Positions 35,288-52,025 of a stretch of 64,000 bases of DNA are shown one piece after another. Both the position numbers and the translations under genes were made by a program. Within the stretch, counting starts at the first letter, position 1; each line of letters opens with the position of its first letter. The notes beneath the pieces were generated by a model. It made no database searches, was not told the origin of the DNA, and saw nothing but the letters and a program-made list of their open reading frames with translations. Where the stretch lies: assembly GCF_004296575.1 (NCBI RefSeq), contig NZ_SAYT01000001.1:776856-840855 (forward strand), given 5' to 3'. This stretch comes from Dyella amyloliquefaciens. Its GTDB lineage: Bacteria > Pseudomonadota > Gammaproteobacteria > Xanthomonadales > Rhodanobacteraceae.

Positions 35288-37546
35288 ATGGCCACAGAGT
35301 CCGCCTCTGCTGCCTGGATTGCATTCGGCACGATCGAGATCGATACCTTGGGCCATCGCCTGTTTGTCGATGGCGAGGAAGTCGGGCTCGAGCGCAAGGC
35401 ATTCGCCGTACTCGTTCTGCTGGCGCGCGATTCCGGTCGCGTACTGGGCCGAGACGAGATCCTCGACGAAGTGTGGGGGCATCATCACGTCACGCCCGGT
35501 TCGCTCAGTCGCGTCATCGCCTTGCTGCGTCATGCGCTGGGTGAGAGCGGGGATGAATGCCGTTACCTGCATACCGTGCATGGCGTCGGTTTCCGCCTCG
35601 ATGCCGATGTCCGGTCCGCCGCGTCGCGCGAAGAGTTGATGGCGGACCGGGCGTCAAGCGTCGCGGAAGTGGACGACGTGCCGGCTCTCATCAGCGAACT
35701 CGGCACGTCTCCAGCCCCACCGGTTGAGAGCGAAGCGCCCCTCGTGCAGCCTGCCAGACCGCGCCGAATCGACAGGAGATTGATCGCGCTGATCGCGGGC
35801 GTGCTCGTGGTGGTGGCTGTCCTGCTTGGCCGCTACACGTTCATGCACCATCCTGGTGGCGCGGCTGCGGACGCGGATCTCAAGTCGATCGCGGTGTTGC
35901 CGTTCGCGAACCTCAGTACAGACCAAGACAATGCTTATTTCGCCAGCGGCATGCAGGACATGATCCTGACCCAGCTGGTGGGCATCGGTGGGCTCAAGGT
36001 GATTTCCCGCACCTCGACCGAGAAGTATCCGAGCCATCCCGAAGACGTGAAGACCATCGCCCGGCAACTGGGCGTGGCGACGCTGCTCGAGGGCACGGTA
36101 CAGAAGGCCGGTAACCAGGTGCTGATCAATGTGCAGCTGATCGATGCGAACAGCGGCAACCACCTCTGGGCGAAGGCGTATACGCGCACGCTCGACAACG
36201 TTTTCAACGTGGAAGGCGAGGTCGCGCAGAACGTGGCCGAGGCGCTGAAGGTACAGCTGACGTCGGCCGAGACCGCGCGCATGGATCGCATGCCTACCTC
36301 GAACGCCGAAGCCTATGACCTGTACCTGCAAGCCGGCGTACACGCCAACCGGGCCTACGACGATACGTTGCAGTCATCGTCCGAGCTGCCGCTGGCGATC
36401 TCGTTGTATCAGCAGGCCCTGGCTCGGGATCCGAACTTCGCACTCGCCTCGGCCGCGCTGGCTCGTGCGCACATGCACATGTATTTCTTCGCACCGGATC
36501 GCACGAATGCGCGATTGGCTGAGGCGAAGGCCGCTGCCGAACGCGCCCTGGCGCTGCAGCCCAATCTGGGCCAAGGGCACTACGCGTTGGGGTTGTATGA
36601 CTACTGGGGGCATCGCGATTACGCCCATGCCAGTGCCCAGCTGGAGTTGGCGCGGCAGGCTTTGCCCAACAGCGCCACCGTCGAGCTCCTGATCGCCGCG
36701 CTCGCCAGGCGGCAGGGGCGCTGGGATGAGGCCGTTGGGCTTTTCCACGCAGCGACCGTTCTGGATCCGCATAGTGAATTCGCGTTCAACCAGCTTGGCG
36801 TGACCTACCAGAGCATGCATCGCTACGCCGATGCCGATAAGGCTTTCGCCGCTGCTCTCGCGGTGAGCCAGAATGCCACTGGCGAACGCATGGCCCAGGA
36901 TTTCAACGACTTGATGTGGAAGGGCAATGTGGCACCGATGCGTACTGCACTCGCGGGGCTTACGCCGGGCAGTGATGCTTACGCCGGCAATGTTGCGGGC
37001 ATGTATTTCGATCGCTCGCTGGCGCGTGATTATGCCAACGCAATCAAGGTGGTCGAGGCGGACAAGCAGGAGTACTGGTCCGATCCCAACAACATAGCGT
37101 TGCCCCGTCGCCTGTTCCTGGCGTGGGCGTTGCAGTCGGCCGGAGACACGGACAAGGCGACCGCGGCGTATACGGAAGTGGCGGCGACTTCCCGTGCTGC
37201 CCTCGTCGATCGGCCGGACGACGCGGACCTGCATCTCGCATTGGGCTTTGCCTATGCGGGACTCGGCCGAAAATCCGAGGCTGTCGCCGAGGGTGAGCGC
37301 GCCGTGGCCTTGATGCCGGTCGCTGAGGATGCCCTCACCGGAGCGGACATGCTCGCGCAGCAGGCGGCGCTCTATGTGCGTGTCGGCCAGCCCGACCAGG
37401 CGATTCCCTTGCTCGAACGGGTGTTGTCCATGCCTACGGGCATGATCCTGTCCGGTGCCTTGTTGCGCATCGATCCGCTGTGGGATCCGCTGCGTGACGA
37501 TCCGCGCTTCCAGGCGCTGCTGCAGAAGTATCCCAACGGCAGCTAG
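35288..37546 (+). CDS. CadC-like membrane-bound transcriptional regulator with TPRs
   Basis: A 752-residue protein. Residues 12-107 are an OmpR-type winged helix (FGTIEIDTLGHRLFVDG, CRYLHTVHGVGFRLD), residues 164-183 a membrane helix, and 200-340 a FlgO/adenylate-cyclase-associated type domain (SIAVLPFANLSTDQDNAYFA, LEGTVQKAGNQVLINVQLID). The remainder is a TPR array. The layout matches CadC/ToxR-like one-component regulators in which a periplasmic part senses a signal and the cytoplasmic part binds DNA. GGGAGG lies upstream of the ATG. Its target is unknown; the adjacent GH92 gene, 230 bp downstream, is a natural candidate. Confidence 0.88.
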   Translation: MATESASAAWIAFGTIEIDTLGHRLFVDGEEVGLERKAFAVLVLLARDSGRVLGRDEILDEVWGHHHVTPGSLSRVIALLRHALGESGDECRYLHTVHGVGFRLDADVRSAASREELMADRASSVAEVDDVPALISELGTSPAPPVESEAPLVQPARPRRIDRRLIALIAGVLVVVAVLLGRYTFMHHPGGAAADADLKSIAVLPFANLSTDQDNAYFASGMQDMILTQLVGIGGLKVISRTSTEKYPSHPEDVKTIARQLGVATLLEGTVQKAGNQVLINVQLIDANSGNHLWAKAYTRTLDNVFNVEGEVAQNVAEALKVQLTSAETARMDRMPTSNAEAYDLYLQAGVHANRAYDDTLQSSSELPLAISLYQQALARDPNFALASAALARAHMHMYFFAPDRTNARLAEAKAAAERALALQPNLGQGHYALGLYDYWGHRDYAHASAQLELARQALPNSATVELLIAALARRQGRWDEAVGLFHAATVLDPHSEFAFNQLGVTYQSMHRYADADKAFAAALAVSQNATGERMAQDFNDLMWKGNVAPMRTALAGLTPGSDAYAGNVAGMYFDRSLARDYANAIKVVEADKQEYWSDPNNIALPRRLFLAWALQSAGDTDKATAAYTEVAATSRAALVDRPDDADLHLALGFAYAGLGRKSEAVAEGERAVALMPVAEDALTGADMLAQQAALYVRVGQPDQAIPLLERVLSMPTGMILSGALLRIDPLWDPLRDDPRFQALLQKYPNGS

Positions 37547-42585: not shown

Positions 42586-44400
42586 TCAGAACTTGCTGTG
42601 CTCCACATCGCGTTCGCGATGCATCAGGGTCCACTCGGCATGCTCGGTCAGGGCTGCGTCGCCCAGTGCGAGGAGGATTTCGCGTTGCTTGGCGGGATCG
42701 CTGGTGCGATCGAGCGCGGCGCGCGCGCTGGCGAAGATGCGTTGCATGAAGCGGTACTGGCGGATCAACTCCTTGTCGGCCTTGCGATACGCATAGGCCT
42801 CGCGCACGGCGGCGACGATGGAAAGTACCGCCATCATCATGACCATGGTGGTCTTGACGCTCTCGGGAAGATGCAGCGCGAATATCGCCAGGAACACGCT
42901 GATCGAGATGCCACCCCACAAGCTGATCATGCCGATGGTCTCGGTGACATGGTGCAGGCCGGTGCGCTCGATGGTCTTGCGCTGGAAGTAGTACAGCTGG
43001 CCGCTCTTGCCCGATTCGCCCACCCACTCGTCGATGACCTCGGATAACGCCGACGCGCGGGGAGTGTCGACGTTGGGCAAGGGATCGACGCCAGCCACGC
43101 GCATCATGTGGCGGATCCAGCCCAGCTCGATGTTCTGCTTCTGCAGGAAGTTGTCATGGGCGAATTCGTGTTCGCCTGTGGCCGATATGCCGGCATGGCG
43201 CCAGTAGGCTTGCACGCGCAGGCCTTCGGCGAGCGCCCGGTAATCAAGGTACTTGCGGTGCCAGCCGCGATGTCGCGCGAGTATCGCGATCAGGGCGCCG
43301 AGTCCAAACAGCAGCAGGAACGTATAGATGAGGAAGTCCTGTGCGGACATGTGCGCGTAGAAGGTGAAGGCAATGCCCATCAAGGCTGCCAGCACGTAGG
43401 TGAGCCTGAGCGCGAGCAAGACGCGCTTCTGGAAATGGATTGCCAGCCAGTCCGCCGCGCGGAAGATGCGCGCGAGTGCGCTGCCATTGGTGAGTATGCT
43501 GTCGGGATCGTCGTCCGGTTCTGCCGCGATGTCATCCGCATACTTCGTGCAGTCGGCGTTGAACTCCGACATGTGTGCGAACATCTGGCAGAACTCGGGT
43601 GGAGGCGTGCGATCGGTGGTGGTGAAGTCACCGCAGCGCCAGTATGTCTGCAGTGGTTGCAGGCCTGGCGCGACGTCGCCGTGGTCACCCTCGCGCGAAC
43701 AGACGATATGGTAGAGCAGGCGCTCATCGCCGCTGCCCAGGACGTGCCTGGCTTCGCGGTGACGCTCGACGAGGCCGGGCAAGGTGCCATTAAGATGGTA
43801 GTTGACGACCTGTGCCGTGCCTCCGAGCCGCCCCGAGTCCTTGCCGTCCCAGATGGCGAGCAGGATGTGGCAGTGACTGGCGATGAATACGCCTGCCTTG
43901 GCGTACTGCCGGTCGCGCGATGGTCCCGGCAAGGCGATCGCGTGATGCGATGGCCCGCGTGGCAACGGGAGTGTAAGCACGTGGGCCTGTTCGCACAGGG
44001 CCTCGAAGCGCGCGCGCGCGGAAGGAGCGGGAAAGTCGTCGAGATAGAGCTCTGCAGGTAGCGGCAAGGGGGCGATCAATCGTGCACCGGCTTCCAGGGC
44101 GACATGTGCGACCAGCTGGTCGCCGCCTTCGGCCAGCGCGGAGAGCACGCATAGCGGCAAGCCCGGGAATTCCTGTCGCAGCATCGCGAAGAACGCGGTC
44201 ACCCGCTCGCGTATGGGCTCGATCTCGGAGGCTGAGATGTTGCGGTGGCTGGTGATGCCGACGACCAGAGGCGTCATGGTGGCGCCGGGTTGTATCGCCG
44301 ACGCCGGATAACTTGTCTGGCCAGATGACGGGCCATGCATCGCAGGTGGGTTCATCGACACGTCCTGCGATTCCACATCCGAGTTGTCCCTGCGATGCAT
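42586..44400 (-). CDS. SLOG domain protein with four membrane helices (SLATT-like)
   Basis: A 604-residue protein. Residues 43-205 look like a SLOG/LOG-type Rossmann fold: PLVVGITSHRN, LCVLSALAEGGDQLVAHVAL, ARLIAPLPLP and HILLAIWDGKDSGRLGGTAQ. SLOG domains bind nucleotide signals in immunity proteins such as ThsA. After a linker come helices at about 328-348 and 355-374, followed by YLDYRALAEGLRVQAYW, the kind of motif that follows the helix pair in SLATT domains; a second helix pair (487-509, 516-534) is followed by a similar basic helix. SLATT proteins are predicted pore-forming effectors. The start at 44400 has AAGGAG five bases before it. It follows small gene D by 19 bp. Domain names are my reading, without a profile search. 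Confidence 0.72.
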   Translation of the reverse strand: MHRRDNSDVESQDVSMNPPAMHGPSSGQTSYPASAIQPGATMTPLVVGITSHRNISASEIEPIRERVTAFFAMLRQEFPGLPLCVLSALAEGGDQLVAHVALEAGARLIAPLPLPAELYLDDFPAPSARARFEALCEQAHVLTLPLPRGPSHHAIALPGPSRDRQYAKAGVFIASHCHILLAIWDGKDSGRLGGTAQVVNYHLNGTLPGLVERHREARHVLGSGDERLLYHIVCSREGDHGDVAPGLQPLQTYWRCGDFTTTDRTPPPEFCQMFAHMSEFNADCTKYADDIAAEPDDDPDSILTNGSALARIFRAADWLAIHFQKRVLLALRLTYVLAALMGIAFTFYAHMSAQDFLIYTFLLLFGLGALIAILARHRGWHRKYLDYRALAEGLRVQAYWRHAGISATGEHEFAHDNFLQKQNIELGWIRHMMRVAGVDPLPNVDTPRASALSEVIDEWVGESGKSGQLYYFQRKTIERTGLHHVTETIGMISLWGGISISVFLAIFALHLPESVKTTMVMMMAVLSIVAAVREAYAYRKADKELIRQYRFMQRIFASARAALDRTSDPAKQREILLALGDAALTEHAEWTLMHRERDVEHSKF

Positions 44401-44419: not shown

Positions 44420-44803
44420 TCAGTTGTTCTTGATCGATGGGTTGGTGGCGGTTCCGACGCCGGTGGTGGCGATTGGATTGCTTTGATAGGTGTTGCCGCC
44501 AACAGCGACCGTCAATATGTAAAACCATTCACCCGTGGTGTTGCTGCTGTTGTTGAGGTCGGCCATGGCCATCGAATTTCTGGCCGGAGAAAATGTAGGC
44601 GCCCCAAAAATGCCGCTCCGTGGCGGAGTGCCGGCCCAGGTCAAGGACACGATGCTTCCCGTCGCGGCATTGCCGTTGAGGTGCCAGTCGACGCTCTGCA
44701 ATGCTTCGCTGCGCGCCACGTGATGGGCGTTGCCCGTCTGGTCGATATCGACGGTCCACGGATTCGTGCTCTCGTTCAGGGTCACTCTCAGGTTGTTGGC
44801 CAC
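44420..44803 (-). CDS. Small protein D with NPSIKNN tail
   Basis: A 127-residue protein of no known family. GTG start at 44801-44803 with GAGGAG six bases upstream; alignment with C sets the same start. It begins VANNLRVTLNESTNPWTVDI, then has WHLNG, SGIFG, MADLNN, TTGEWFY and ends TATNPSIKNN. These features recur in C (most similar) and A. No signal peptide or membrane helix. The composition (short strands, Asn/Thr/Gly turns) suggests a small beta-sandwich. It lies between C and the SLOG gene and is a tandem duplicate of C. Confidence 0.78.
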   Translation of the reverse strand: MANNLRVTLNESTNPWTVDIDQTGNAHHVARSEALQSVDWHLNGNAATGSIVSLTWAGTPPRSGIFGAPTFSPARNSMAMADLNNSSNTTGEWFYILTVAVGGNTYQSNPIATTGVGTATNPSIKNN

Positions 44804-44869
44804 AGTTTGCTCCTCATTTCCGGATGTAAAGGGACCCGTGTTAGGCAATGCTTCCAGGCGGAATGCTCG

Positions 44870-44923
44870 CTACTGCGGATCGCTCCTGGCTGGCGCTGCC
44901 GGCACGCGCTGCTGGAATGCGGT
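44870..44923 (-). pseudogene. Duplicated remnant of the TIR gene 3' end
   Basis: Read on the reverse strand this segment still encodes AFQQRVPAAPARSDPQ and a stop, against AFQQRLQAALARNDPQ and a stop at the true end of the TIR gene (45389). The DNA downstream (44820-44870) also matches the region after the TIR gene (45330-45388), including GGCGGAATGCTCG and ACTGCGGATCG. It is the scar of the tandem duplication that produced gene D. Confidence 0.8.
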
Positions 44924-45321
44924 CAGTTGTTCTTGATCGATGGGTTGGTGGCGGTTCCGGTGATGGCAACGGCGCCGCTGTAGTAAATGGTGCCGTTTGC
45001 GACGAGCTGGACCCCTATCTGGTAATACCATTCGCCCGTGGTGTTGCTGCCGTTGTTGAGGTCGCTGAGAGTCATCGATTTCCCGTTCGGAGCGATGACG
45101 AATGGCCCGAAAATGCCGGAGGGTGGCGGGTTGAACGTAGGTGGATCGTTGAGCCAGCTGCAGCTCACGATCCTTCCGGACGCCGCATTTTCTGTGAGCT
45201 GCCAGGTGATGGTCTGTTGGTTGTTGCCGCGTGGTACATGATTGGCATTGTCCTTCTGGCTGACATCCACGAGCCACGGGCTCGTGGTTTCGTCCAAAGT
45301 CACGGAAAGGTCGTTGGCCAT
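44923..45321 (-). CDS. Small protein C with NPSIKNN tail
   Basis: A 132-residue protein, closest relative of D: MANDLSVTLDETTSPWLVDV, then NANHVPRG, WQLTEN, SGIFGPF, MTLSDLNN, TTGEWYYQIGV and a final TATNPSIKNN. The start has GAGGA seven bases upstream. The last 39 bp of coding sequence are identical in C and D, pointing to recent duplication or gene conversion. No signal peptide. Function unknown; its place between the TIR and SLOG genes suggests it works with them. Confidence 0.8.
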   Translation of the reverse strand: MANDLSVTLDETTSPWLVDVSQKDNANHVPRGNNQQTITWQLTENAASGRIVSCSWLNDPPTFNPPPSGIFGPFVIAPNGKSMTLSDLNNGSNTTGEWYYQIGVQLVANGTIYYSGAVAITGTATNPSIKNN

Positions 45322-45388
45322 CGTCTGGTCCTCAAGTCAGGATGCGGAAGGAACCCTGTTGGGCAGCTACTACTGGGCGGAATGCTCG

Positions 45389-47578
45389 TTACTGCGGATC
45401 GTTCCTGGCGAGCGCCGCTTGCAGGCGCTGCTGGAACGCCGCATTGGCGGGGTAGTCGATGTCGTGCTGTTTGAGCGTGACGAGAAGATCGAGATCGCGG
45501 TAGCCCGAATCCCATAGCTGCTGCACCAGCGGTGCTGCTTCGGGGCCACGGCCGAGGCTGAGCAAGGTGTCGACGCGCAAGGCGATCAGGCGTGGATCAC
45601 CCGCGCCGCTGGAGACGGCGGTGACGTCCTTGAGCACGTCTTCGCGCCACTTGCTTGCCTTGTCGGCATCGTTGGTAGTGGCGGCGAGCAGCAGGCGTAC
45701 GGTTGCCGTGTCCAGCAGCAACGTGCGCTCTGCAGGCTGGTTTTCATGCAAGGGTGAAAGCACGGCAAGCGCCTTGGTGGCCTGGTCATGCGCCTGGTCG
45801 GGGTTGCTGGCGAGTGACTGATTCGCCTGTTCCACCTGCGCCTCGGCGAAGTCCTGCTGCCACTCTGTATTGCTCGGATCGGTGTGTGTCATGTCGCCGA
45901 AGATCTTCAGCGCGCGGTTGTTCAGTTCCGTCGCCGTGGCGTCGTCGCCGGATAGTCGGCGCAGTCGCGCAAGTTGTGTGGAATACAGCGCCACCTTTGC
46001 ATGGAAGCTCGTTTCGTTGGGCTCGAACTTTGCGAGCTCTATGGCTCCATCAACGGCTTGCTGGAGATGCTCGCTGCCCGCGTTGACATCGCCACCCAGC
46101 GCCATGGTTCGCCCGAGGATGGCGCGCACGCGCACCATGTTTTCCTTCTGGTCGTTGTTTTTAGGATCGCTCTCGCTCAGCGCGGTCTCGATCGCGTCGT
46201 CGGCACGGTATTCCGCGATAGCAGTGACAAGGTCGCCCTGCATCAGCGCCATCTTGCCGAGATTGTTGTGTGCTTCGCCCAGCAGCTCCTGCCAGTCCGT
46301 CTTGGGGTTCTTGCCGCGCACCAGCTCACGGCAGTGCGCAAGCATGCTCTGATACTGCGCGGTGGCTTGATCGAGCTTTCCCTGTGCCTCCAGCACGTGG
46401 CCAAGGTCGTCGTCCACGGTCGCCCATTGCTGGATGAATTCCTTGTCGGACGCGGAAGTCAGTGGAGTGCGCCGCAGGATGTTCTGCGCCATCGCGAATT
46501 GCTCCTCTGCCGAGGGAAGATTGCCGCGGTACCAGTCGGTCATGCCGATGAACGTGACGATGCGCGAGTAGGCCACCTGCCTGGCGACATCGGCGGGTGC
46601 ATGCTGCGCGAGCCCCCCGGAGATTTTCGCGGCGGCCTGATAGGACTGCATGGCGGTGTCGAGATGGCCCTGACTGAGACGCACACCACCGATCTTTTCC
46701 AGCGCCTTGGCGCGCTGCTCGAGCGAGACGTCGGTGACGTCGTCGCTCGGCAGTGACTGGAAATAAGCCATGGCGCGGTCATCGACGGCTTCCATGATGT
46801 CCAGCCGTTGCACCTGGCCCAGCTTGTCGTTGAGGTCGCCGAGCATGAAGCCGACCAGGCTTTCGGCCTGGTTGCGCTCGCGCTCCGCCACACGCTGCGC
46901 CTGGACGGCGATGACGGCGAGCGTCGATGTCATCAGGGTGATGGCGACGGCAACGGCGGCGATCGCTGCGAGCCGGCGCTGATGGCGTTGCTGCTCTCGT
47001 TGCTTGAGCTTGTCGAAACCGATGTCGAGCATCCCGGCAATCAGTTTCAGCTTGGCATTGGTCCTGCCGTCCTTGCCGGGACGCGCATCGGCCGCGATGG
47101 GTTCGGTGCGCTGCTCGGACAAACCATCGGAGCCATCCCATTCGAAGCGCAGCGCCCGTGCGAAACACTCTTCGGCTTCGCGTCCGGCGACCTCGCTGGT
47201 GTTGGGTTCACCGCCGACGATCAGGCAGAAAATGCGATCGGAATGCCCAAGCCGCTTGAACGCCAGCACTTCCTCGTTGACCCAGTGCGACCGGGCCGAC
47301 TGCGGGGAGCAGATCACGACCAGGTTGGCCGATTCGGACAGTGCTTCGTTGACCTTGCGGCCCAGGTCGGTCGCACTGGCCAACTCGTCGCGGTCGCGGA
47401 AGACCGGCAGCAGGCGCTTGGGCACTACGCCGGCAGGCGTGACCTGTCCGACCAGCCGTTGCGGAACCCGGTAGCTTTCCAATGAGCGGTGCAGCCAGTC
47501 GGCCCAGGCTTTGTCCTGGTGGCTGTAACTGATGAATGCGCGATACCGAAATGCCGGCACGCCGGATTCCTGCGCCAT
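45389..47578 (-). CDS. TIR domain - transmembrane - TPR protein
   Basis: A 729-residue protein. Residues 10-135 are a TIR domain: YRAFISYSHQDKAWADWLH, LLPVFRDRDELA, NLVVICSPQSARSHWVNEEV. E103 in WVNEEV aligns by eye with the catalytic glutamate of NAD-cleaving TIR domains (WVHKE in SARM1). A membrane helix lies at about 202-225, then a segment with LVGFMLGDLNDKLGQVQRLD, common in TIR/STAND-TPR proteins, then TPR-like helices to the C-terminus. It probably senses or scaffolds through TPRs and may produce an NAD-derived signal. The start at 47578 gives a compact N-terminus; GGAG is 11 bases upstream. It is separated from the small genes B (288 bp) and C (67 bp). Confidence 0.85.
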   Translation of the reverse strand: MAQESGVPAFRYRAFISYSHQDKAWADWLHRSLESYRVPQRLVGQVTPAGVVPKRLLPVFRDRDELASATDLGRKVNEALSESANLVVICSPQSARSHWVNEEVLAFKRLGHSDRIFCLIVGGEPNTSEVAGREAEECFARALRFEWDGSDGLSEQRTEPIAADARPGKDGRTNAKLKLIAGMLDIGFDKLKQREQQRHQRRLAAIAAVAVAITLMTSTLAVIAVQAQRVAERERNQAESLVGFMLGDLNDKLGQVQRLDIMEAVDDRAMAYFQSLPSDDVTDVSLEQRAKALEKIGGVRLSQGHLDTAMQSYQAAAKISGGLAQHAPADVARQVAYSRIVTFIGMTDWYRGNLPSAEEQFAMAQNILRRTPLTSASDKEFIQQWATVDDDLGHVLEAQGKLDQATAQYQSMLAHCRELVRGKNPKTDWQELLGEAHNNLGKMALMQGDLVTAIAEYRADDAIETALSESDPKNNDQKENMVRVRAILGRTMALGGDVNAGSEHLQQAVDGAIELAKFEPNETSFHAKVALYSTQLARLRRLSGDDATATELNNRALKIFGDMTHTDPSNTEWQQDFAEAQVEQANQSLASNPDQAHDQATKALAVLSPLHENQPAERTLLLDTATVRLLLAATTNDADKASKWREDVLKDVTAVSSGAGDPRLIALRVDTLLSLGRGPEAAPLVQQLWDSGYRDLDLLVTLKQHDIDYPANAAFQQRLQAALARNDPQ

Positions 47579-47866
47579 GACGAGTCGCACTCCAGTAGCA
47601 GGCAGCGCATTCCCTTGCCGGGAAGTCCACATTCATGGGCGGCGGTCACACTTGGCAGGCACGATGCACGATCGATACCGGCTCCCCTTCTCGCCAGCCT
47701 AACACGGTGTTCGAGAGCTTATGGACGGCCAGATGGCCGATTGGGTGGCCATATGGCCGACGATCATGGGCGTTCTCCTGGGCAGCAAGCCTGGCGTCAG
47801 CCATGCACGCCGCCCACGCGTGTGCACATCCGGGCGGCGGGATGTGCTTTCCGAGTGTGCGGTGGA

Positions 47867-48052
47867 TCAGTTGTTCTTGATGCTGGGGTTGCGGGCCGGG
47901 TCCGCACCGGATGGCAGAGGCGGGGCCGGTGCGGGTGCCGGGGCCGGCGCGGGAGCGGGTGCGGGAGCAGGGGCTGGCGCCGGAGACTGTCCCATCGCAT
48001 AAGCAAAGCCCGGGTCGAGTGCCCATTGACCCTCGATGTCTATACGGTACAT
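47867..48052 (-). CDS. 61-residue Ala-Pro-rich peptide B with NPSIKNN tail
   Basis: A short protein: a 22-residue start MYRIDIEGQWALDPGFAYAM, a run of about eleven Ala-Pro pairs encoded by a near-hexameric DNA repeat (47922-47982), and a C-terminus GADPARNPSIKNN. GGGAGA lies six bases before the ATG. The tail is identical to those of C and D although the rest is unrelated, so the tail appears to be a portable element on a rigid Ala-Pro stalk. Coding status is supported by the tail, the ribosome site and position 30 bp after gene A. Confidence 0.68.
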   Translation of the reverse strand: MYRIDIEGQWALDPGFAYAMGQSPAPAPAPAPAPAPAPAPAPAPPLPSGADPARNPSIKNN

Positions 48053-48082
48053 GTCGTTCTCCCAAGGAATCAGGGTGGCTGG

Positions 48083-48592
48083 TCAGCGATTCTTGATCGT
48101 TGGATTGGTGGCTGCTGAGATCCCGTAGCCGTCACCTGGGCCAGGGATGGGGCCGGCAATAGTGGAGCCGCGCGTGGTGGCCGCGAGCATGCGGCTGCTG
48201 CGCAATGGTTTGATGCGGGCAGGATAGGGCGGCTGGAAGCGGGTGCGATAGACCACGCCGTCAATCGTGGCGCTGAGCCGGTAGTACCAGGTGCCGACCT
48301 TCTCCTCGAAGTTGAATTGGTCTTCCAGGGTGATGGTCTGCCCGCGATCGCCGACCTTGGGCGGACCGAAGATGCCGGGGAATGGTGGGCTTATCCAAAG
48401 AAAGCCCGGTGATATCGCGTCGTCCATCGCATTGAAGTGACCGGACGTCCCATGGTGCTGCAGCTGCCAGCGGATGGGCTGGGGCCGGGGCATCCGCTTG
48501 AGTCGGGTGGTTTCCCTGGGGACATCTACATAGAGGTAGGGCGGCGTGCCTCGCGGCACGATCAACCTCACGGTAATGGCGTGTACGGTCAT
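48083..48592 (-). CDS. Small protein A with NPTIKNR tail
   Basis: A 169-residue protein, first gene of the group. AAGGAG lies six bases before the ATG. It has no signal peptide. Shared features with C and D are WQLQHHG, FPGIFGPP, TITLEDQF, VGTWYYRLSA and the tail AATNPTIKNR. It carries an insert of about 35 residues between the domain and the tail (PPYPARIKPLRSSRM and on). The N-terminus MTVHAITVRLIVPRG is strand-like. I find no known family. Its divergence from C and D shows that the domain family is older than the local duplication. Confidence 0.78.
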   Translation of the reverse strand: MTVHAITVRLIVPRGTPPYLYVDVPRETTRLKRMPRPQPIRWQLQHHGTSGHFNAMDDAISPGFLWISPPFPGIFGPPKVGDRGQTITLEDQFNFEEKVGTWYYRLSATIDGVVYRTRFQPPYPARIKPLRSSRMLAATTRGSTIAGPIPGPGDGYGISAATNPTIKNR

Positions 48593-49215
48593 GGGTTGCT
48601 CCTTTCCGTCAAGGGATGCGTTGGCTCGTCAACAGCAAGACCTTCCCGCCGCGCGTTGCGCGGATGTCGCTGAAAAAATCCAAAGGCACGACGAGGCTCC
48701 ACGCGGAGGGCGTGGGCATGAGACAGGCAACGTCGGTTGATCGACACCATGCGCCATGGCGCGCCCGCTCCTGCACAAGGCAAATGTCATCCCTGGACGG
48801 GAAGTCCTCGTACGTCGGGCGGTAGGTCGTGTATCGCCAGCGTGATCAAGGCGGCTGGCGTCCCCTCGGTGGTGGAGACTAGCACGGCATCTTGCGGTCG
48901 GCGTGATCTCTTGCGTTCGCCATCTCACCGGAAACGCGCGAATTACGCTGCAATTTCACTTCATCGTCACGCTGGCGGCGAACGCGGATTATGTGCACTG
49001 ATCCCGCAATACCGTAATTTTGCTTAGGCCGCATACGTAGACTTCCTGATTGCCATGGATGGGCAAATCCGCGACCGTTCAGACACCCACGTCAGCGAGA
49101 CGTAATCACTTCGTCTGTCGATGGCCAGCAGGCGTGTTTCTGCAGGCCAGGTCCGGCGACGTGCCGACGCTCGCAATGCGACGTGGCGACCAGAGCAGTC
49201 GCAAGGAGAACGAGC
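48593..49215. other. Intergenic region between the TIR-SLOG group and the HAD-sulfatase cluster
   Basis: About 620 bp between divergent transcription units. Short open frames on both strands have no ribosome site or recognisable product. It must contain the promoters for both sides, but I cannot place them with confidence. No repeat or tRNA-like end is seen, so there is no visible attachment site for a mobile island. Confidence 0.5.
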
Positions 49216-50259
49216 GTGTACGTATCGAGTTCCACGGACGGGAGAGAGTGGACCCGCCGAAGCTCATGGGTTGCGCGCGTGCTGTCCGTGCTGCTCCTGC
49301 TTCCGTTGGCCTGGGGGAATGTCGCGTTCGCCGCACAGGACGCGTTGCCTTCGTGGAACGACGGGGCGGCCAAGCAGCAGATCCTGGATTTTGTGAAGAA
49401 GGTCACGACGACCGGGTCTTCCGACTTCGTGCCGCCTGATCAGCGCATTGCCGTGTTCGACAACGATGGCACGCTGTGGTCCGAGCAGCCCATTTACTTC
49501 CAGTTCTTCTTCGTCATCGACCAGTTGAAGGCACAGGCGCCGCAGCATCCGGAGTGGAAGACCACCGAGCCGTTCAAGTCCGCGCTGGCGGGTGATCTCA
49601 AGGGCGTGGCCGCCTCTGGCGAGAAAGGCATTGCCCAGCTGATGGCGGCAACACACGCGGGCATGACCACCGACGAGTTTGCCAAAAGCGTCAACCAGTG
49701 GGTGTCCACCGCGCGCCATCCGAAGACGCATCGCGTGTTCACCGAGATGGTTTACCAGCCAATGCTCGAGTTGTTGCACTTCCTGCGCGACAACGGTTTC
49801 AAGACCTACATCGTTTCCGGTGGCGGCCAGGACTTCATGCGTGCCTGGGCAACCGCGGTGTATGGCATTCCCCCCGAACAGATCATCGGCAGCCAGGGCG
49901 AACTGAAGTTCGAGCTGCGCGACGGTAAGCCCGTGCTGTTGAAGGAAGCGAAGGTGGCGTTGATCGATGACGGCCCGGGCAAGCCCGTGGGCATCGAGCG
50001 CTTCATTGGGCGCAAGCCGATTCTCGCGTTCGGCAACTCCGATGGTGACCAGCAGATGCTCGAGTGGGTGGCATCGGGCGACGGCGCGCGCTTTGCGGGC
50101 TTGGTGCACCACACCGATGCGGCGCGTGAGTGGTCCTACGACCGCCAGTCATCGGTGGGCAAGCTCGACAAGGCACTGGATGAGGCCACAGCCAAGGGAT
50201 GGACCGTGGTCGATATGAAGAAGGACTGGAAATTGGTCTTTCCAGCGGACCAGAAGTAA
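49216..50259 (+). CDS. Exported HAD-superfamily phosphatase
   Basis: A 347-residue phosphatase with an N-terminal export signal (RVLSVLLLLPLAWGNVAFA|A) preceded by arginines. HAD motif I is FDNDGTLW with D82 and D84, motif II TYIVSGGG, motif III K in LLKEAKVALIDDGPGK, and motif IV FGNSDGD. It belongs to the phosphoserine phosphatase-like C1 group; the substrate is unknown. The GTG start at 49216 follows AAGGAG by seven bases, overruling an in-frame Met 11 codons upstream. It heads the sulfatase/MoxR-Bat cluster. Confidence 0.88.
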   Translation: MYVSSSTDGREWTRRSSWVARVLSVLLLLPLAWGNVAFAAQDALPSWNDGAAKQQILDFVKKVTTTGSSDFVPPDQRIAVFDNDGTLWSEQPIYFQFFFVIDQLKAQAPQHPEWKTTEPFKSALAGDLKGVAASGEKGIAQLMAATHAGMTTDEFAKSVNQWVSTARHPKTHRVFTEMVYQPMLELLHFLRDNGFKTYIVSGGGQDFMRAWATAVYGIPPEQIIGSQGELKFELRDGKPVLLKEAKVALIDDGPGKPVGIERFIGRKPILAFGNSDGDQQMLEWVASGDGARFAGLVHHTDAAREWSYDRQSSVGKLDKALDEATAKGWTVVDMKKDWKLVFPADQK

Positions 50260-50357
50260 CGCAGTGAGGGTTGCGGCGCCAGGCCAGGGTGCCGTCATGG
50301 ATTGGCTTGTGACTACCGCCGGTTGCCTGTGCAACCGCAACACCCAGGAGGTACCCC

Positions 50358-52025
50358 ATGTTTCCCCCGTGGCAGCGCAGTACCTTGTTGAAATCACTCA
50401 CGACGGTAGTCGCGACGGCTCTGCTCGTCGTAGGCGCCGTGACCATGGAGCCAAGTGCCGTCAAGGCGCGACCGGCGCAGGACCAGCAACAGGAGCAGGG
50501 CGACAACGGCAAGCCGAACATCCTGGTGATCTTCGGTGACGACGTCGGCCAGTCGAACATCAGTGCCTACACGATGGGCCTGGTGGGCTACCGGACGCCG
50601 AACATCGACCGCATCGCCCGCGAGGGCATGATCTTTACCGACTACTACGCCGAGAACAGCTGTACGGCAGGCCGTTCGACTTTCATCACCGGCCAGACCG
50701 TGTTGCGCACGGGCCTGTCCAAGGTCGGCATGCCGGGTGCTGCCCAGGGTCTGCAGGATCGCGATGTCACCATTGCGCAGGCGTTGAAGGGCCTCGGTTA
50801 TGCGACGGCCCAGTTCGGCAAGAACCACCTGGGTGACCAGGATCGCTTCCTGCCGACCAAGCATGGCTTCGACGAATACTTCGGCAACCTCTACCACCTC
50901 AACGCCGAAGAAGAGCCGGAACGTCCGTACTGGCCGGGAAACAACCCCGCGTTCCTGAAAATGTACAACCCGCGCGGCGTGCTCCACACCTATTCGGACG
51001 GCAAGATCGATGACACCGGTCCGCTCACCGTCAAGCGCATGCAGACCATCGACGACGAGACGACGGGCGGCGCCATCTCGTACATCCAGAAGCAGGCGCA
51101 GGCCAAGCAGCCGTTCTTCGTGTGGATGAACTTCACGCGCATGCACATCTTCACCCATGTGCGGCCGGACTACATCGGCAAGGCTGGCCTTGGCAAGGGA
51201 CACGAATATGCCGACGGCATGTGGGAGATGGACCAGAATGTCGGCAAGCTGCTGAAGACGCTGGATGACGCAGGCATCACCAAGAACACCATCGTCATCT
51301 TCACTACCGACAACGGTCCGAACTTCTTCACCTGGCCGGATGCGGCGAATACGCCATTCCGCAGCGAGAAGGATTCGAACTGGGAAGGCGCGTTCCGCGT
51401 GCCGGCGATGATCCGCTGGCCGGGGCACATCCGTCCCAACCTGGTGAGCAACGCCCTGATCTCAGGTCTCGACTGGTTCCCGACCCTGGTGGCTGCTGCA
51501 GGTGATGCGGACATCACCAACAAGCTGCTCAAGGGCACCAGCATCAGTGGCAAGTCGTTCAAGGTGCATCTGGATGGCTACAACTTCCTGCCATACCTGA
51601 CAGGAAAGACGAATACATCGCCACGCGATGAATTCTTCTACTTCAACGACGATGCCGAGATGGTCGCGGTCCGATGGGATCCCGTCGAGGTAGGCGGTGT
51701 CAGGCCGGATGCCTGGAAAGCCGTGTTCTGCGACCAGCGCGCCCCGGGTGGCCTGCAGATCTGGATGGAACCGTTCACCTGCCTGCGCCTGCCCAAGCTC
51801 TACAACCTGCGCATGGATCCGTATGAGCGTGGCGACATCGGTCCGACCAGTGGCTACTACCAGTGGGAGACCGAGAATGCCTACCTGACCGCCGAAGCGG
51901 GCCGCCGTGCCGGCGAGTTCCTGGCGACGTTCAAGGATTATCCGCCCAGCCAGAGTCCAGGCTCCTTCACCATCGACAAGGCCGTCGAGCAGTTGAAGAT
52001 GGAACTGCAGAAGCAGGGCAAGTAA
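50358..52025 (+). CDS. Exported arylsulfatase-type sulfatase (CTAGR motif)
   Basis: A 555-residue alkaline-phosphatase-fold sulfatase with an N-terminal hydrophobic export segment (about 12-30). Metal residues are seen in FGDDVG (D61, D62) and TTDNGPN. The nucleophile motif is SCTAGRSTFITG with C102, so the sequence is C-x-A-x-R instead of the common C-x-P-x-R; the cysteine must be turned into formylglycine for activity. No maturase gene lies in the window. Substrate unknown. The gene follows the HAD gene by 98 bp. Confidence 0.9.
   Translation: MFPPWQRSTLLKSLTTVVATALLVVGAVTMEPSAVKARPAQDQQQEQGDNGKPNILVIFGDDVGQSNISAYTMGLVGYRTPNIDRIAREGMIFTDYYAENSCTAGRSTFITGQTVLRTGLSKVGMPGAAQGLQDRDVTIAQALKGLGYATAQFGKNHLGDQDRFLPTKHGFDEYFGNLYHLNAEEEPERPYWPGNNPAFLKMYNPRGVLHTYSDGKIDDTGPLTVKRMQTIDDETTGGAISYIQKQAQAKQPFFVWMNFTRMHIFTHVRPDYIGKAGLGKGHEYADGMWEMDQNVGKLLKTLDDAGITKNTIVIFTTDNGPNFFTWPDAANTPFRSEKDSNWEGAFRVPAMIRWPGHIRPNLVSNALISGLDWFPTLVAAAGDADITNKLLKGTSISGKSFKVHLDGYNFLPYLTGKTNTSPRDEFFYFNDDAEMVAVRWDPVEVGGVRPDAWKAVFCDQRAPGGLQIWMEPFTCLRLPKLYNLRMDPYERGDIGPTSGYYQWETENAYLTAEAGRRAGEFLATFKDYPPSQSPGSFTIDKAVEQLKMELQKQGK

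What the first reader, a model, noticed from the sequence alone, without database searches (positions are those of the whole stretch)
44420..48592. Shared C-terminal peptide NP(S/T)IKN(N/R) on four otherwise different small proteins
Genes A (TNPTIKNR), B (RNPSIKNN), C and D (both TNPSIKNN) all end in the same heptapeptide exactly at the stop codon. B has nothing else in common with the others. A conserved extreme C-terminus on non-homologous bodies suggests a docking, processing or degradation tag read by a partner, perhaps the TPR or SLOG protein. A, C and D also share a domain core: W-Q/H-L, GIFG, a T/A-L/D-N block and G-x-W-Y/F-Y.
Basis: seen in the sequence. Interest (0 to 1): 0.88.

Follow-up and report, generated by a model that had tools for sequence, protein, structure and literature searches.

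The report
Shared C-terminal tail for TIR-TPR receptors
Small, otherwise unrelated proteins next to a bacterial immune-type (TIR) receptor all end in the same short peptide, and that peptide travels with this receptor in many bacteria, so it is probably the part the receptor recognises.

Summary
All four small proteins end in NP[ST]IKN[NR]; A, C and D are related Ig-like proteins, B is a disordered PAPAPA peptide. In the 4.83-Mb genome the tail pattern occurs four times, all in this locus. A pattern scan of 198 related genomes gave 48 matches (reversed control: 1), and all 26 true-stop loci checked sit in this cassette. Starting from TIR-TPR homologues alone, 51 of 61 loci carry a neighbouring P-x-[IV]-x-N tail, against 13 of 4052 distant ORFs. 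The tail sits on several unrelated bodies: Ig-like, other beta-rich, acidic 47-65-aa and Sec-exported peptides. Seven genomes have no Ig-like body at all, only a peptide with the tail (three) or a variant of it (four). Tails on unrelated bodies of one locus co-vary without codon conversion. Tails follow the TIR-TPR gene, not the SLATT gene. Best reading: a transferable linear motif bound by the TPR superhelix of a TIR-TM-TPR receptor that signals to a SLOG-like/SLATT membrane effector. Cassette, motif and association are shown; binding and signalling are inferred. No description was found in the papers searched. Unexplained: most carriers lack export signals while the TPR is predicted periplasmic.

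The parts
48083..48592 (-). Gene A, tail carrier (Ig-like body, long linker, tail)
   Evidence: homologues in L033 and L035
48083..48106 (-). tail of A: NPTIKNR-stop
47867..48052 (-). Gene B, tail carrier with disordered PAPAPA body
   Evidence: equivalents in L033 and L035
47867..47890 (-). tail of B: NPSIKNN-stop
45389..47578 (-). TIR - one transmembrane helix - TPR superhelix protein (P0005), predicted reader of the tail
   Evidence: Pfam TIR_2 1.7e-13, TPR_12; TM helix and charge bias; AF2 of the L091 homologue and Foldseek to LGN/OGT TPRs
44923..45321 (-). Gene C, tail carrier, Ig-like beta-sandwich
44923..44946 (-). tail of C: NPSIKNN-stop
44420..44803 (-). Gene D, tail carrier, tandem duplicate of C (GTG start)
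44420..44443 (-). tail of D: NPSIKNN-stop
42586..44400 (-). SLOG-like N-terminus (by motif only) plus DUF4231/SLATT membrane module (P0006), predicted effector
   Evidence: DUF4231 in 22/22 and SLATT_3 in 21/22 homologues at E<=0.01; present in most cassettes

Best explanation
A compact conflict/signalling cassette. A membrane protein with a TIR domain, one transmembrane helix and a TPR superhelix is encoded next to one or more small tail-carrier proteins and, usually, a SLOG-like/SLATT membrane effector. The P-x-I-x-N tail is a transferable linear motif that binds the TPR superhelix of the TIR protein. The bodies in front of it are interchangeable, so they set when or where the tail is presented (sensor domain, disordered spacer or exported peptide). 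Binding or loss of the tail switches the TIR domain, which makes an NAD-derived signal; the SLOG-like domain senses it and the SLATT module permeabilises the membrane. Shown: cassette, motif, association with TIR-TPR, co-variation.
For: Tail ORF beside 51/61 TIR-TPR loci sampled without regard to the tail, against 13/4052 distant ORFs. Among loci sampled by the tail protein, TIR-TPR in 35/36. Pattern scan: 26/26 checked true-stop loci in the cassette (25 with TIR-TPR, 1 with SLATT and body only). Among SLATT-sampled loci, eight without TIR-TPR have no tail ORF beside SLATT. TIR-TPR plus a DPx[IV] tail occurs in distant relatives (L150, L151, L153, L154, L156, L158) and in Novosphingobium. Seven near-complete genomes have TIR-TPR and SLATT but no Ig-like body anywhere; three have a P-x-I-x-N peptide, four a variant. 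Same-locus tails on unrelated bodies co-vary (permutation P=1.5e-4) without codon conversion. TPR model resembles the peptide-binding superhelices of LGN and OGT. In the fusion model the linker is below pLDDT 50 up to residue 786 and only the last seven residues, NPGIKNT, rise above it. W99 and E103 (WxxxE) are invariant in the TIR domain.
Against: AF2 packs C's tail as an ordered strand on its own body, so it may not be free. One TM helix with positive-inside charges puts the TPR in the periplasm, yet most carriers lack a signal peptide. Ten of 61 TIR-TPR loci lack the strict pattern, though several have variants (KPRIKPS, NPRIKST). The pLDDT rise to 50-54 in the fusion is weak and could reflect column conservation; no coordinates were available to see a contact. 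The SLOG assignment rests on motif recall; no library confirmed it. Nothing here shows defence function; flanking genes identified are housekeeping.
Confidence: 0.6

Rival explanations
1. The tail is the last beta-strand of the Ig-like fold. The disordered peptides supply or compete for that strand in trans, like donor-strand complementation, and the TPR is not the reader.
For: AF2 of C models residues 128-131 as a strand with high confidence after a less certain linker.
Against: Seven near-complete genomes have TIR-TPR and SLATT with a tail or variant-tail peptide but no Ig-like body anywhere. Several carriers have long linkers before the tail (A; L047; L063). Unrelated folds carry it.
Confidence: 0.15
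2. The C-terminal peptide is cut off and acts as a diffusible signal between or within cells, as with RRNPP pheromones or FxSxx-COOH peptides; periplasmic TPRs sense it, making TIR-TM-TPR a bacterial peptide receptor.
For: Carrier gene directly follows the TPR receptor gene; 47-65-aa carriers with only the C-terminus conserved; some carriers have Sec-type signal peptides (L076, L087, L145; L212); TPR predicted periplasmic.
Against: Most carriers lack export signals; no conserved peptidase or modifying enzyme in the cassette; many carriers are folded domains.
Confidence: 0.2
3. The tail is a degradation or export tag read by general housekeeping machinery.
For: Extreme C-terminal position on unrelated proteins.
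Against: All 26 checked true-stop hits in 198 genomes are in the cassette; the variants co-vary per locus.
Confidence: 0.05
4. The SLOG-like/SLATT protein, not the TIR-TPR protein, reads the tail.
For: SLATT gene present in most cassettes; L062 has tail and SLATT without an adjacent TIR-TPR.
Against: SLATT loci without TIR-TPR have no tail ORF beside SLATT; several TIR-TPR/tail loci have no SLATT within 6 kb.
Confidence: 0.1

Closest known systems
FxSxx-COOH peptide-processing systems of VMAP/FtsH ternary conflict systems (Kaur et al. 2020, PMC7159879)
   Same: Variable small proteins with a conserved C-terminal peptide, coupled to TIR and TPR proteins.
   Different: Different motif; no radical-SAM or metallopeptidase gene conserved here; carriers include folded Ig-like domains; Proteobacteria rather than Actinobacteria; TIR, TM and TPR in one protein.
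RRNPP peptide-receptor pairs (PMC10075063)
   Same: TPR receptor gene next to a small gene whose C-terminal peptide is the conserved part.
   Different: Receptor carries TIR and TM segments; Gram-negative; most carriers have no signal peptide; some carriers are folded domains.
Thoeris and TIR-SLATT systems (described in PMC9503650)
   Same: TIR protein encoded with a SLOG- or SLATT-type sensor/effector.
   Different: Effector is DUF4231/SLATT, not a sirtuin; extra TPR and TM on the TIR protein; dedicated tail carriers.
TPR readers of C-terminal motifs (Hop-EEVD, PEX5-PTS1; from general knowledge)
   Same: TPR superhelix proposed to read a short C-terminal motif on unrelated proteins.
   Different: Here 1-7 residues may follow the core, so a strict carboxylate clamp is unlikely; reader and carriers are genetically linked.

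Membership tests
Thoeris | TIR-domain protein | tested here: met
   TIR_2 1.7e-13, ThsB_TIR 1e-8; WxxxE invariant
Thoeris | SLOG sensor domain on the partner | tested here: inconclusive
   Motif only; no Pfam, PADLOC or PDB hit for the N-terminus
Thoeris | ThsA-type sirtuin effector | tested here: not met
   Partner is DUF4231/SLATT
FxSxx-COOH systems | C-terminal FxSxx motif | tested here: not met
   Tail is P-x-[IV]-x-N
FxSxx-COOH systems | radical SAM or metallopeptidase neighbour | tested here: not met
   Only three gene clusters recur in most loci: TIR-TPR, carrier, SLATT
RRNPP | TPR receptor with adjacent small propeptide gene | tested here: met
   Carrier start usually within 200 nt of the TIR-TPR stop
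RRNPP | exported propeptide | tested here: inconclusive
   Signal peptides in only a few carriers
SLATT effectors | SLATT/DUF4231 2TM domain | tested here: met
   DUF4231 above Pfam cut-off in the window protein; SLATT_3 just below its cut-off
NADase TIR | NAD hydrolysis or cyclisation | not testable with these tools
   needs an enzyme assay

The most novel reading that the evidence does not exclude
TIR-TM-TPR proteins are bacterial ligand receptors with a Toll-like layout (outside recognition domain, one membrane helix, cytosolic TIR). Their dedicated ligand is a P-x-I-x-N peptide tail that evolution has attached to many unrelated carrier proteins.
Probability: 0.25. Interest if true: 0.92.

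Novelty: new variant of a known kind. Interest (0 to 1): 0.78.

Why it matters
It gives a concrete, testable ligand motif for a widespread family of TIR proteins whose trigger is unknown, with a ready-made control (delete or mutate seven residues). A tail that moves between unrelated bodies would show how bacterial TIR systems swap sensors while keeping one receptor, and it flags small unannotated peptides as partners of immune-type proteins.

Tried and rejected
Pfam, NCBIfam and PADLOC gave no family for carriers A-D; B's weak hits are low-complexity. PDB sequence searches with carriers found nothing. The SLOG-like N-terminus found nothing meaningful in PDB. DP-EP family hits to L126 and L145 are sub-threshold, so not claimed. 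C has no phage match, and P0005 one distant plasmid match. One hmmscan call failed on wrong coordinates and was repeated. Literature searches for SLATT/TIR/TPR/tail found no description; the 2015 SLOG/SLATT paper is not held. Gene conversion rejected. Considered but not run: residue co-evolution between tail and TPR, too confounded by phylogeny with about 60 loci.

Full report
Check. The four proteins and their tails are as described. On the minus strand the order is A (48592-48083), B (48052-47867), the TIR-TPR gene (47578-45389), C (45321-44923), D (44803-44420) and the SLOG-like/SLATT gene (44400-42586), all in one direction. The NPxIKNx-stop pattern occurs four times in the 4.83-Mb genome, all here, with none in the reversed control. 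The tail is conserved as protein: codons differ between A, B and C/D, and only C and D share the same tail DNA.

Relatives sampled by C. A search of 198 genomes of the family found homologues in 32. Regions around them show a small cassette with varying flanks: TIR-TPR in 35 of 36 loci, a tail carrier, and SLATT in 28. Nearly all Ig-like carriers end in the tail, with P, I and N invariant in the alignment. Several loci also carry short, non-homologous peptides with the same tail.

Relatives sampled by TIR-TPR. A scan of genome contigs brought in Dyella, Rhodanobacter, Frateuria, Luteibacter and other loci without using the tail in the query. 51 of 61 loci have a P-x-[IV]-x-N ORF nearby, against 13 of 4052 distant ORFs. 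Carriers fall into unrelated groups: Ig-like, other beta-rich (L122, L126, L129, L145; L121, L130; L131), acidic disordered peptides of 47-65 aa, and peptides with Sec-type signals (L076, L087). Distant TIR-TPR relatives sampled at phylum level also have neighbours ending in DPx[IV] motifs (L150, L151, L153, L154, L156, L158), and so does Novosphingobium sp. RL4 (DPDIKN).

Relatives sampled by pattern alone. In 198 genomes the DNA pattern matched 48 times, the reversed control once. Of 29 fetched loci, 26 end in a true stop and all are in the cassette (25 with TIR-TPR, one with SLATT and the Ig-like body); the other three carry TGG in the stop position and have no cassette gene.

Which partner. 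Eight SLATT-sampled loci without TIR-TPR, leaving out one at a contig edge, have no tail ORF beside SLATT, while several TIR-TPR/tail loci have no SLATT within 6 kb. Seven near-complete genomes with TIR-TPR and SLATT have no Ig-like body anywhere, while the positive control G163 was found. Of these, G090, G033 and G179 carry a P-x-I-x-N peptide, and G011, G113, G171 and G162 a variant (NPRIKST, KKPGIKPS, KKSGIKPS, NTGVKNN). So no Ig-like body is needed for the peptide to be kept. Three further loci of the same genus (L231-L233) showed no such ORF between TIR-TPR and SLATT.

Co-variation. In 16 loci with both a body-type carrier and a peptide carrier, the variable tail positions match more within loci than after shuffling (2.81 against 2.13 of 4, P=1.5e-4), while codon identity is similar within and between loci (0.73 and 0.68). 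This fits a shared local reader. The shuffle does not remove the relatedness of loci, so the P value overstates independence.

Structure. AF2 of C (pLDDT 91.6, 33 sequences) gives an Ig-like sandwich with the tail as a strand; Foldseek finds only weak Ig matches. A model of the L091 TIR-TPR protein, read through its stop into the adjacent 49-aa carrier, shows TIR, long helices and a TPR superhelix; the linker is below 50 pLDDT and only the final NPGIKNT rises to about 50-54. The TPR part resembles LGN and OGT superhelices. The fusion is an in-frame read-through made for modelling, not a natural protein.

Topology. One hydrophobic helix with positive charge on the TIR side predicts a cytosolic TIR and a periplasmic TPR. 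Most carriers have no signal peptide. Either the carriers leave by another route, or they meet the receptor only after envelope damage, or the topology prediction is wrong. This is the main unexplained point.

Mechanism. Inferred: the TPR binds the tail, the TIR domain makes an NAD-derived signal, and the SLOG-like/SLATT protein opens the membrane. The last two steps rest on what is known of TIR-SLOG and SLATT systems (PMC9503650), not on data here.

Known relatives. The nearest concepts are FxSxx-COOH systems (PMC7159879) and RRNPP pairs (PMC10075063, abstract). Neither motif nor gene content matches, so this is filed as a new variant that works like a receptor with a C-terminal peptide ligand.

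Noticed in passing
L076 8828-9022, L087 9191-9388, L145 5584-6057: Tail carriers with Sec-type signal peptides, unlike most carriers.
   Followed up: partly
L207 (minus-strand carrier beside TIR-TPR) and L119 2277-2831: Carriers ending in a C-terminal transmembrane-like helix; in L207 a VIRN motif precedes it.
   Followed up: no
L076 and L087: Three different tail carriers in one locus between TIR-TPR and SLATT.
   Followed up: partly
L055/L084, L061, L064, L121, L126, L138: Two TIR-TPR genes in one locus.
   Followed up: no
window 35288-37546 (+): CadC-like winged-helix, TM and TPR protein near the locus, same general layout as TIR-TM-TPR (by eye, not tested).
   Followed up: no
window 49183-52025 (+): Phosphatase-like and sulfatase-like genes (by eye) flank the cassette at the same site in L033, L035 and L060.
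   Followed up: no
L126 8335-8739 and L145 5584-6057: Sub-threshold matches to the DP-EP family reaching the C-terminus; possible wider family.
   Followed up: partly
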